Assembly (NCBI RefSeq): GCF_007556775.1
Contig: NZ_CP041742.1
Location: forward strand, 1,240,001 to 1,304,000
Length of the DNA stretch: 64,000 bases
Direction of reading: 5' to 3'
DNA from: Lysobacter lycopersici
Lineage (GTDB): Bacteria; Pseudomonadota; Gammaproteobacteria; Xanthomonadales; Xanthomonadaceae
The notes under the pieces were generated by a model. The model searched no databases. It worked only from the letters and a program-made list of their open reading frames with translations, and was not told where the DNA came from. Below, one piece after another: positions 5,308-18,733 of the stretch (position 1 is its first letter; each line of letters opens with the position of its first letter). The position numbers and the translations under genes are program-made.

Positions 5308-5868
5308 TCAGAACCCGATATCTTCCTCGGCCCCTAAAGTACCCAGCAATATCGACACGCCGGGCGGAAGTGAACAGGTGACCGAGAAGGCACCGGAAGT
5401 CGGGATGTTGGTTGACCCGCCAAATTCCACGGGAAACCAATCCGTCTCATCATAAGCGGTGATTTCAGGATCGACTGTCACTGTTTTTGTGGCGTAATAC
5501 ATCGGCGCGTACCTGTTACCCGACGGCCAGGAGTTCACGGCGGTGCAGGAAAAACTATGCACCAAGCCATCAATCGAGCCGAAAATCACGCCGTAGTAGG
5601 TCGGATCCCAGGATTGTGCGGATGCCCCAAAAGACGCCTGTCCAGGAGCCGAGTCGAACGAGCAGATCACGAAAGAACTCGTAGTACCTTCGTTGCGAAA
5701 TCCCGTCGACTTCGGCCGGACTTTCGTGTTGTTGGTTGGAATACTCAGGGTGCACAGATTCGCACCTGGATATGTCGGAGAACGATCGAGAGATACCGCC
5801 TGTGTCGGCGGCGGAAGCATCATCGACGCAACCACCGCGAACATTCCCGCAAATCGCATATGGTTCAT
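5308..5868 (-). CDS. secreted four-cysteine family protein, paralogue A
   Basis: A 186-residue exported protein of unknown function; signal peptide MNHMRFAGMFAVVASMML... ending near TQA. It is a distant paralogue of the three tandem genes at 16823-18697: all share C-x-LS-x-P, the block KxTGFRNEGTT followed by FVIC, a CTAVN-like element and a C-terminal FSVTCSLP-like element. Four conserved cysteines suggest two disulfides in a beta-rich periplasmic or secreted domain (inference). A G-run precedes the start, as in paralogues C and D; the second Met (5859) is an alternative start. I do not recognise a named Pfam family. It is transcribed opposite to its neighbours. Confidence 0.75.
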   Translation of the reverse strand: MNHMRFAGMFAVVASMMLPPPTQAVSLDRSPTYPGANLCTLSIPTNNTKVRPKSTGFRNEGTTSSFVICSFDSAPGQASFGASAQSWDPTYYGVIFGSIDGLVHSFSCTAVNSWPSGNRYAPMYYATKTVTVDPEITAYDETDWFPVEFGGSTNIPTSGAFSVTCSLPPGVSILLGTLGAEEDIGF

Positions 5869-16770: not shown

Positions 16771-16801
16771 CGAAAACCCCGGCGCGAGGCCGGGGTTTTC
16801 G
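16771..16801. terminator. bidirectional intrinsic terminator
   Basis: A 13-bp stem CGAAAACCCCGGC / GCCGGGGTTTTCG around a short GCGAG loop, with A-tract and T-tract flanks built into the stem. It sits between the convergent peptidase gene and paralogue B and can serve both strands. Confidence 0.88.
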
Positions 16802-16822: not shown

Positions 16823-17353
16823 TCAGCTGCCGACGTCTTCACTCATGTTGGCAAGCACCAGGTCGAGGCTTACGTTGGGCGGCAGGATGCAGGTGATCGA
16901 GAACGCACCGGTGCCGGGGATGCCGCTACCGTCGCTGACGCCGAAGTCATCCTCGATCCACCAGAACTGGGTGAGGTTGGTGCCGGTGTTCTGGATCTTC
17001 GTCACGTACTGTTGGTCGCCGAGCACGCTGAACGAGTTGACGCCCGTGCACTGCACGTCGTGCCCGGCGCCGTCGAGCGAAAGCGCGGCGAGGCCCGCAT
17101 CGATGAATGGAGCCGAGCCGAAGCTGCCGCCAGGACCGTTGTCGGTATGGATCGTGCAGATCACGAAGACGTTAGTGGTTCCCTCGTTGCGGAAACCGGT
17201 GGCGCGCGGGCGCACCTTGCTATCGGTGGTCGGGACGCTCAGCTTGCAGGTGTCTGCGCCCAGGGCGGCGATCAACCGGTTCTGGGTAACGGCCTGTGCG
17301 GGCTGGCTGATGCCCATCCCCAGGGCAAGAGCGACGGCGGACGTGGCAACCAC
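16823..17353 (-). CDS. secreted four-cysteine family protein, paralogue B (start disturbed)
   Basis: Unknown function; shares with paralogue A the blocks CKLSVP, RATGFRNEGTTNVFVIC, CTGVN and FSITCILPPNVS, and the same C-terminal -EDxG ending. The start is a problem: a perfect Shine-Dalgarno (GGAGGAA, 17374-17380) is followed by an ATG at 17367, but that ATG is out of frame with the signal peptide (YLSVVATSAVALALGMG...). Adding one base would join them. The coordinates given start at an in-frame GTG (17353) with no good ribosome site; an in-frame TTG lies at 17458. A one-base deletion or sequence error is likely, so this may be a new pseudogene. Confidence 0.65.
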   Translation of the reverse strand: MVATSAVALALGMGISQPAQAVTQNRLIAALGADTCKLSVPTTDSKVRPRATGFRNEGTTNVFVICTIHTDNGPGGSFGSAPFIDAGLAALSLDGAGHDVQCTGVNSFSVLGDQQYVTKIQNTGTNLTQFWWIEDDFGVSDGSGIPGTGAFSITCILPPNVSLDLVLANMSEDVGS

Positions 17354-17461
17354 GGATAGGTATGCATTCGAACTTCCTCCCGGATCGGGCCGGAATGGCC
17401 CCCTGCAACGGCCAACGAAAACGCCGGACCCGACCGGCCAGTCATCGCCTCGCCACAAACA

Positions 17462-17487
17462 AAAACCCCGGCGCGAGGCCGGGGTTC
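17462..17487 (-). terminator. intrinsic terminator after paralogue C
   Basis: Read on the minus strand: stem AACCCCGGC / GCCGGGGTT with a CTCGC loop, followed by TTTTG. It lies 20 bp beyond the stop of paralogue C. The stem matches that of the terminator at 16771-16801, suggesting duplication along with the genes. Confidence 0.85.
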
Positions 17488-17506
17488 GAACGAAGCCGGG
17501 ATCCGC

Positions 17507-18040
17507 TCAGGTTGCCGGGACGTTCACGTTGAACTGGGTCACCATGTAGCCGACGCTGGTTTTCGCCGGCAAGTTGCAGGTGATCGACCAATAGTCGTTC
17601 TGCGCGAGCGGATTGCCCGCCGTTCCCCCGAAATCGGAAGCGTCCCAGTTAATGGTCGCTGCCGTGCCGTTCGTGTTCGTCGCCAGCGTCTTGGAGGAAT
17701 AGAGCGGGGTGGAGTTCGCATAACCGTTGACGGCAGTGCAGGTGACCGACGCCGAAACCCCGTTCAGGGAATACAGCCCGATGGTGAGGCCCTTGATCGT
17801 GCCCATGGCCTCCTGGCTGTTCGCGGATTCCATCCCGCAGATGATGAACGCGCTGGTGTCGCCTTCGTTTCGAAGGCCGGTCGCCTTCGCCTTGACCGTG
17901 AGGTTCAGGCTCATGTCGGTGAGCTTGCACACGACGCCGCCCTGCGCGGCCTGTTTGCGGGTTTCGACTGCCGCACCGGCGGGTTGGGCGACGGATGCCA
18001 ACACCATGGCGGCGATGGATACGCCTAGCAAAATACGCAT
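17507..18040 (-). CDS. secreted four-cysteine family protein, paralogue C
   Basis: A 177-residue exported protein, signal MRILLGVSIAAMVLASVAQ ending PAGA. It is closest to paralogue D next door: both begin MR-x-LLGVSIAA, share AQGGVVC, KATG-RNEG-T, ICGMES, VTCTAVNG or VSCTAVNG, DASDFGGTAG and WSITC-LP. Four cysteines are conserved with A and B. A GGGGGAA run 3-4 bases before the ATG serves as the ribosome site. Function unknown; probably periplasmic or secreted, beta-rich, with disulfides (inference). Confidence 0.78.
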   Translation of the reverse strand: MRILLGVSIAAMVLASVAQPAGAAVETRKQAAQGGVVCKLTDMSLNLTVKAKATGLRNEGDTSAFIICGMESANSQEAMGTIKGLTIGLYSLNGVSASVTCTAVNGYANSTPLYSSKTLATNTNGTAATINWDASDFGGTAGNPLAQNDYWSITCNLPAKTSVGYMVTQFNVNVPAT

Positions 18041-18057
18041 TTGTTCCCCCTAATTCC

Positions 18058-18076
18058 GCGGATCCGAGGGATCCGC
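18058..18076. promoter_or_regulatory. palindrome in the 5' leader of paralogue C
   Basis: Perfect 8-bp arms GCGGATCC / GGATCCGC around GAG, about 18-36 bp upstream of the paralogue C start on the minus strand. A similar palindrome precedes paralogue D. It could be an operator, an RNA hairpin in the leader, or an end of paralogue D's transcript. Confidence 0.45.
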
Positions 18077-18166
18077 CTGTAATGGATCGAAGCACTGAAT
18101 GGAGATCCGCCCGCCATGCGCGAACCCGGATCACTACCTGGGTTCATGGCCGGGCCGAGCGACGAT

Positions 18167-18697
18167 TCAGTTGGGAGTGTTCACGGTGAACTTGGTCACC
18201 AGGTTGCCGATGGCCGAATTCCCCGGCAGGGCGCAGGTGATCGACCAGAAGTCGCTTTCCGGCAACGGGTCGCCCGCCGTCCCGCCGAAGTCGGAGGCGT
18301 CGAAGCTCAGGGTCGCCGTGGTGCCGTTCGCGGGCACGCTCGCATTCTTGGTCGAATAGATCGGGGCGCCGTTCGCGAACCCGTTGACGGCGGTGCAACT
18401 CACGGTCTTCGCGGACTGGTTCAACGAGTACAGGCCCATGCTGAGTTGCAGGATCGTACCGACGTCGCTGTGGCTGTTCGAGGATTCCATGCCGCAGATC
18501 GCGTACGCGGTGGTGGTCCCTTCGTTGCGGAAACCGGTTGCCTTCGCCCTGGCCATGGTGTCCGAAGTGGGGATGCTGAGCTGGCATACGACGCCGCCCT
18601 GCGCGTTCTGGAAGCGATTTTCGGTTCCGGCCTTGGCCGGATTGGCGGCGGATGCCAGTACCACGGCGGCAATGGATACGCCAAGCAAAGTACGCAT
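18167..18697 (-). CDS. secreted four-cysteine family protein, paralogue D
   Basis: A 176-residue exported protein, signal MRTLLGVSIAAVVLASAAN ending PAKA. It is the nearest relative of paralogue C (tandem duplication). Family blocks: CQLSIP, RAKATGFRNEGTTTAYAICGMES, CTAVNG, DASDFGGTAGDP, FWSITCALP. I used the ATG at 18697, which follows a GGGGGAA run, exactly as in paralogue C; an in-frame upstream ATG at 18763 has no such site. Function unknown. Confidence 0.78.
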   Translation of the reverse strand: MRTLLGVSIAAVVLASAANPAKAGTENRFQNAQGGVVCQLSIPTSDTMARAKATGFRNEGTTTAYAICGMESSNSHSDVGTILQLSMGLYSLNQSAKTVSCTAVNGFANGAPIYSTKNASVPANGTTATLSFDASDFGGTAGDPLPESDFWSITCALPGNSAIGNLVTKFTVNTPN

Positions 18698-18712: not shown

Positions 18713-18733
18713 GGCGGATCGGGATGATCCGCC
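18713..18733. promoter_or_regulatory. palindrome in the 5' leader of paralogue D
   Basis: Arms GGCGGATC / GATCCGCC around GGGAT, 16-36 bp upstream of the paralogue D start. Same core GGCGGATC and same distance from the start as the palindrome before paralogue C, so it may be a shared control element. Confidence 0.45.

What the first reader, a model, noticed from the sequence alone, without database searches (positions are those of the whole stretch)
16823..18697. Tandem family of small secreted four-cysteine proteins
Three adjacent paralogues (B, C, D), plus a fourth at 5308-5868 (A), share signal peptides, four cysteines, a KATGFRNEGTT-like core, a CTAVN-like block and a terminal FSITC-LP motif. 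I do not recognise a described family. Repeated duplication with strong divergence, and duplicated terminators, suggests selection for variety, for example effectors, surface proteins or inhibitors.
Basis: partly seen in the sequence, partly recalled or inferred. Interest (0 to 1): 0.66.

Follow-up and report, generated by a model that had tools for sequence, protein, structure and literature searches.

The report
Amplified secreted four-cysteine jelly-roll family
A bacterium with a compact 2.6-Mb genome carries about 39 divergent copies of an uncatalogued small exported protein predicted to fold like a sugar-binding domain, many of them behind one shared upstream signal found almost nowhere else in its DNA, so it looks like a dedicated set of outside-the-cell proteins whose job is still unknown.

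Summary
The four window genes (A-D) belong to a family of 39 in this 2.6-Mb genome (37 by single-sequence search, 2 more by a wider profile), mostly in tandem arrays of 2-7 between unrelated genes. All are uninterrupted, carry export signals, are acidic and keep four cysteines and one Asn; median identity is 35%. No Pfam, NCBIfam, PHROG or PDB-sequence family matches. Distant relatives are sparse and low-copy (at most 7 seen) in Luteimonas and other Gammaproteobacteria. AlphaFold models of D (pLDDT 81) and B (85.5) agree on a beta jelly roll whose best structural neighbours are carbohydrate-binding modules (Z 9-10). Unexpectedly, 17 members elsewhere in the genome (not the window's four) lie behind a fixed-spacing element, TGTCCGnTT-N14-CGCATA: all 14 exact copies in the genome and 3 of 4 one-mismatch copies precede family genes, suggesting a dedicated promoter. 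dN/dS of the closest pairs is 0.3-0.7, so 'selection for variety' is not shown. Best guess: secreted single-domain binders, perhaps of glycans, forming a recognition repertoire. Function is inferred, not shown.

The parts
5308..5868 (-). Gene A, family member, 186 aa precursor
16823..17353 (-). Gene B, family member (GTG start; N-terminus uncertain); jelly roll predicted, pLDDT 85.5
17507..18040 (-). Gene C, family member, 177 aa precursor, 59% identical to D
18167..18697 (-). Gene D, family member, 176 aa precursor; mature domain predicted as jelly roll, pLDDT 81
16775..16797 (-). Terminator-like hairpin after B, exact copy of the one after C
17464..17486 (-). Terminator-like hairpin after C, exact copy of the one after B
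18058..18076 (-). Hairpin in the 5' leader of C, just before the ribosome-binding site
18713..18733 (-). Hairpin in the 5' leader of D, just before the ribosome-binding site

Best explanation
A lineage-amplified family of small, acidic, exported single-domain proteins. Shown by computation: export signal, four invariant cysteines, 39 uninterrupted and diverged copies made largely by tandem duplication. Predicted: a beta jelly-roll fold. Inferred: the protein leaves through Sec, the cysteines form two disulfides in the periplasm, and the folded domain acts at the cell surface or in the medium; the conserved core holds the sandwich while the variable loops bind different external ligands, most likely sugars of other organisms or of the bacterium's own matrix, giving a repertoire of binders. 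Nearly half of the copies (not those in the window) appear to be started from a dedicated promoter of alternative-sigma type, so that this part of the family would be switched on together.
For: 39 members in one genome, all with signal peptide and four Cys, acidic. Two models of different members agree on a jelly roll. Best structural neighbours are carbohydrate-binding modules of several families, Z up to 10.2 for D and 9.5 for B, also at the top of the Foldseek lists. Conserved core, variable stretches 69-92 and 105-151. No conserved partner gene, so each works alone. Fixed-spacing element: 14 of 14 exact and 3 of 4 one-mismatch copies in the genome precede family genes.
Against: A shared jelly roll shows no function; Z 9-10 is only a little above what unrelated models reach, and receptor, toxin and phage domains score nearly as well. 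No CBM family matches by sequence. No strong enrichment of aromatics in the variable loops apart from a conserved Trp at 132. No expression, location or binding data. The window's own four genes lack the element.
Confidence: 0.4

Rival explanations
1. Surface or matrix structural proteins: the copies assemble into or decorate an extracellular layer, and their number and divergence reflect dosage and tiling rather than choice of ligand.
For: Small, exported, acidic, Thr/Ser/Gly-rich beta proteins with stabilising cysteines; many copies; purifying selection.
Against: Median identity of 35% and very different loops are more than a dosage gene needs. No anchor, repeat or sorting motif was seen in the alignment.
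Confidence: 0.22
2. Secreted agents against rivals, prey or hosts: antagonistic effectors or inhibitors (for example of hydrolases), diversified by their targets.
For: Small, secreted, cysteine-stabilised, amplified and diverged, as in known effector families; jelly-roll domains also occur in toxins. One pair of arrays flanks two secreted M4 metallopeptidases.
Against: No immunity or partner gene beside any of the loci looked at; dN/dS below 1; the M4 neighbourhood occurs at one site only.
Confidence: 0.22
3. Near-neutral amplification: tandem duplication and conversion multiply the genes with little benefit.
For: Tandem arrays; one pair has a 60-nt core stretch identical in all 60 positions against 71% elsewhere, which looks like gene conversion; lower GC3 than neighbours, 0.79 against 0.88.
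Against: No broken copy among 37-39 despite large synonymous divergence; dN/dS below 1; the two boxes of the upstream element are almost invariant while the spacer between them varies.
Confidence: 0.1

Closest known systems
Jelly-roll carbohydrate-binding modules (CBM4, 6, 11, 16, 22, 35, 36, 61)
   Same: Predicted fold, domain size, secreted, variable loops on a beta sandwich
   Different: No sequence match to any CBM family; not attached to an enzyme; four invariant cysteines; binding not shown
Amplified small secreted cysteine-containing effector families (for example of fungi and plant pathogens)
   Same: Many diverged, short, exported, cysteine-stabilised paralogues in one genome
   Different: Bacterial; conserved mature core and freely varying signal peptide; dN/dS of paralogues below 1; no target known. 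Comparison from general knowledge, not tested
Unnamed low-copy relatives in Luteimonas and other Gammaproteobacteria
   Same: Same length, signal peptide, four Cys and Asn at the same places
   Different: About 20-25% identity to D, 1-7 copies instead of 39, no upstream element
ECF-type promoters such as ECF41 (TGTCACA-n16-CGTC; PMC3426412)
   Same: Bipartite, fixed spacing, TGTC-like first box and CG-containing second box
   Different: Here TGTCCGnTT and CGCATA, 17 nt between TGTCCG and CGCATA; the sigma factor is not identified and transcription is not shown

Membership tests
Carbohydrate-binding modules (jelly-roll type) | Beta-sandwich jelly-roll fold | tested here: met
   Two AlphaFold models, pLDDT 81 and 85.5; CBMs lead the structural neighbours, Z 9-10. 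Prediction, not a solved structure
Carbohydrate-binding modules (jelly-roll type) | Sequence membership in a CBM family | tested here: not met
   No Pfam CBM match for any of 49 members
Carbohydrate-binding modules (jelly-roll type) | Binds carbohydrate | not testable with these tools
   Needs binding assays
Carbohydrate-binding modules (jelly-roll type) | Part of a carbohydrate-active enzyme | tested here: not met
   All members are single-domain, 139-194 aa mature
Antagonistic secreted effectors with immunity partners | Adjacent immunity or partner gene | tested here: not met
   Neighbours are unrelated, different at each locus
ECF sigma-dependent promoter | Conserved bipartite boxes at fixed spacing upstream of the regulated genes | tested here: met
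   TGTCCGnTT-N14-CGCATA, 29 nt, 69-75 nt before the ATG in 17 members
ECF sigma-dependent promoter | Match to a published ECF group consensus and a cognate sigma factor | tested here: inconclusive
   Layout resembles ECF41 but the boxes differ; compared with one published group only; no sigma gene was tied to it and no expression data exist

The most novel reading that the evidence does not exclude
A bacterium keeps a large, dedicated repertoire (about 39) of single-domain secreted jelly-roll binders, part of it run as one regulon from its own promoter type, comparable in logic to the lectin or effector repertoires of eukaryotes but built from a family that no database searched here describes.
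Probability: 0.28. Interest if true: 0.75.

Novelty: new variant of a known kind. Interest (0 to 1): 0.55.

Why it matters
One family takes about 20 kb (0.8%) of a compact 2.6-Mb genome, with no broken copy, and no library searched names it. If it is a binding repertoire it would show how a bacterium diversifies outward-facing recognition by plain gene duplication. The near-exclusive upstream element offers a handle: finding the factor that reads it would say when, and so perhaps why, the family is made.

Tried and rejected
Plasmid or phage origin: no tblastn match in either collection and none in viral contigs. Known family by sequence: weak hits (SLT_3, Pyocin_S and the like, E above 0.01) were judged chance because no family matched more than one member in the Pfam and NCBIfam scans, or more than two in PHROGs. 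The PDB sequence hit to a uridylyl transferase (E 0.006) covers mainly the signal-peptide and N-terminal part and was rejected. Conserved partner gene: none around the loci looked at. The terminator as a common genome-wide element: rejected, only two sites. Positive selection among paralogues: not seen. Comparing 80-nt upstream identity with coding identity was uninformative, because free gaps inflate it. The element in relatives: absent. Weak match 1896933-1897070 (E 0.5) not counted. VIA-align compares only the chains that Foldseek ranks highest, so a fold not listed is not excluded. Literature searches found no description of the family.

Full report
CHECK. The four proteins are present at the stated coordinates on the minus strand and align over their whole length with 32 invariant columns. 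A single-sequence search of the window's own genome (2,596,073 bases, one contig; the window is 1,240,001-1,304,000) with D finds 37 matches, the weakest at E 5e-11. The profile of the four window proteins finds the same 37. A wider profile adds two, at 605,421 and 2,301,387, giving 39. Arrays: six at 1.000-1.004 Mb, three in the window, three at 1.546 Mb, four at 1.762 Mb, seven at 1.844-1.848 Mb, four at 2.467 Mb, pairs at 2.541 and 2.549 Mb, and singles elsewhere. Gaps inside arrays are mostly 82-156 nt.

ANATOMY. Members carry a signal peptide (by inspection of the alignment) and exactly four cysteines in the mature part; one member has six, because of a C-terminal extension. Mature pI is 4.1-6.4 and the median mature length 153. 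The block from Cys38 to Cys68, consensus CQLSIPTTDTKVRPKATGFRNEGTT..FVIC, is the most conserved long block (mean entropy 1.05 bits); the Cys101 and Cys155 blocks follow the same rule, and the stretches 69-92 and 105-151 vary at about 2.5-2.9 bits. Over 49 sequences including distant relatives only C38, N58, C68, C101 and C155 stay invariant.

RELATIVES. D alone finds nothing in 59 other genomes. With the 37-member profile, 17 of 395 same-family genomes match (own one included), from 12 genera, with at most 7 copies in a genome when all candidates are scored. In the class 11 of 369, in the order 12 of 299 and in the phylum 2 of 398 genomes match. The weakest of these are at chance level, and the large searches scored only 8-11 candidates per genome, so counts there are rough. 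Named relatives are Luteimonas arsenica, L. colneyensis, L. padinae and Luteimonas MAGs (NCBI family Lysobacteraceae). The close form of the family was not found in 84,980 species genomes, where records near the window's own genome may be left out. No other genome of the genus is held.

FOLD. Mature D, predicted from the four window sequences, has pLDDT 81 and pTM 0.77. Mature B, predicted with nine Luteimonas-type rows added, has pLDDT 85.5 and pTM 0.81. The two agree in the order and nearly the position of their strands: a beta sandwich of about ten strands. Both lead to jelly-roll carbohydrate-binding modules among solved structures, with Z of 9-10 for the best. That is somewhat above the 7-8 that models without clear relatives typically reach, so the fold class is well supported but a specific kinship is not. 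Toxin, receptor and phage domains of the same fold class follow closely.

UPSTREAM ELEMENT. Lining up the 5' flanks showed TGTCCG[C/G]TT-N14-CGCATA with a constant total length of 29 nt, starting 69-75 nt before the start codon, in 17 members (allowing one mismatch) of arrays at 1.00, 1.55, 1.76, 1.85, 2.47 and 2.55 Mb; an eighteenth (2.091 Mb) has a more relaxed form. In the whole genome there are 14 exact copies of the pattern, all before family genes, and four with one mismatch, three of them before family genes. The reversed control pattern gives five matches at up to two mismatches. The boxes are nearly invariant (positions 1-6 and 25-26 identical in all 18) while the spacer varies. The fourth one-mismatch site and two two-mismatch sites precede other exported or lipoprotein-like genes without any Pfam domain. 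Descent with the duplicated genes explains part of this, but coding sequences from different arrays are only about 50% identical, so the boxes look constrained. The layout resembles ECF promoters such as ECF41, TGTCACA-n16-CGTC (PMC3426412). That is a resemblance, not a test. The window's four genes lack it; C and D instead share a hairpin just before the ribosome-binding site.

EVOLUTION. In a tree of 37, members of an array cluster (15 label changes against 26.8 in shuffles), which fits tandem duplication plus some spread between sites. The closest pairs have dN/dS of about 0.3-0.7 (C against D 0.67). One pair at 1.845 Mb has 60 of 60 identical nucleotides inside the core against 71% outside, and core dS 0.05 against about 0.6, which looks like a local conversion tract. 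GC3 is 0.79 against 0.88 for 20 neighbouring genes. The members are uninterrupted.

READING. Shown by computation: four-cysteine exported-type proteins, amplification, uninterrupted copies, near-exclusive upstream element. Predicted: the jelly roll. Inferred: two disulfides, location outside the cell, ligand binding by loops, dedicated promoter. I put a binding repertoire (perhaps for glycans) at 0.4, structural surface protein at 0.22, antagonistic or inhibitory agent at 0.22 and near-neutral amplification at 0.1.

Noticed in passing
L030 8862-13292 (genome 2,543,861-2,548,291): Two tandem secreted M4 (thermolysin-type) metallopeptidases, one with a PPC and one with a PKD domain, lie between two family pairs.
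   Followed up: partly
L027 8918-9574 (genome 1,846,917-1,847,573): One family member has a C-terminal extension CGDGLDDDNDGLSDYPADPEC, an acidic, calcium-motif-like stretch with two extra cysteines.
   Followed up: no
L144, L145, L137 (genome 1,510,876; 1,946,548; 591,709): Three non-family exported or lipoprotein-like genes without Pfam domain lie behind near-copies of the upstream element and may share its control.
   Followed up: partly
window 17353-17367: Gene B: the ATG with a good ribosome-binding site (17367) is out of frame with the signal peptide; only a GTG (17353) is in frame, so the start may be decaying or differently used.
   Followed up: partly
window 18058-18076 and 18713-18733: C and D each have an 8-bp hairpin directly before the ribosome-binding site, similar in sequence; role unknown.
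   Followed up: partly
L027 7072-8136 (genome 1,845,071-1,846,135): Two neighbouring members share a core stretch identical in 60 of 60 nucleotides while the rest is 71% identical, which suggests recent gene conversion.
   Followed up: partly
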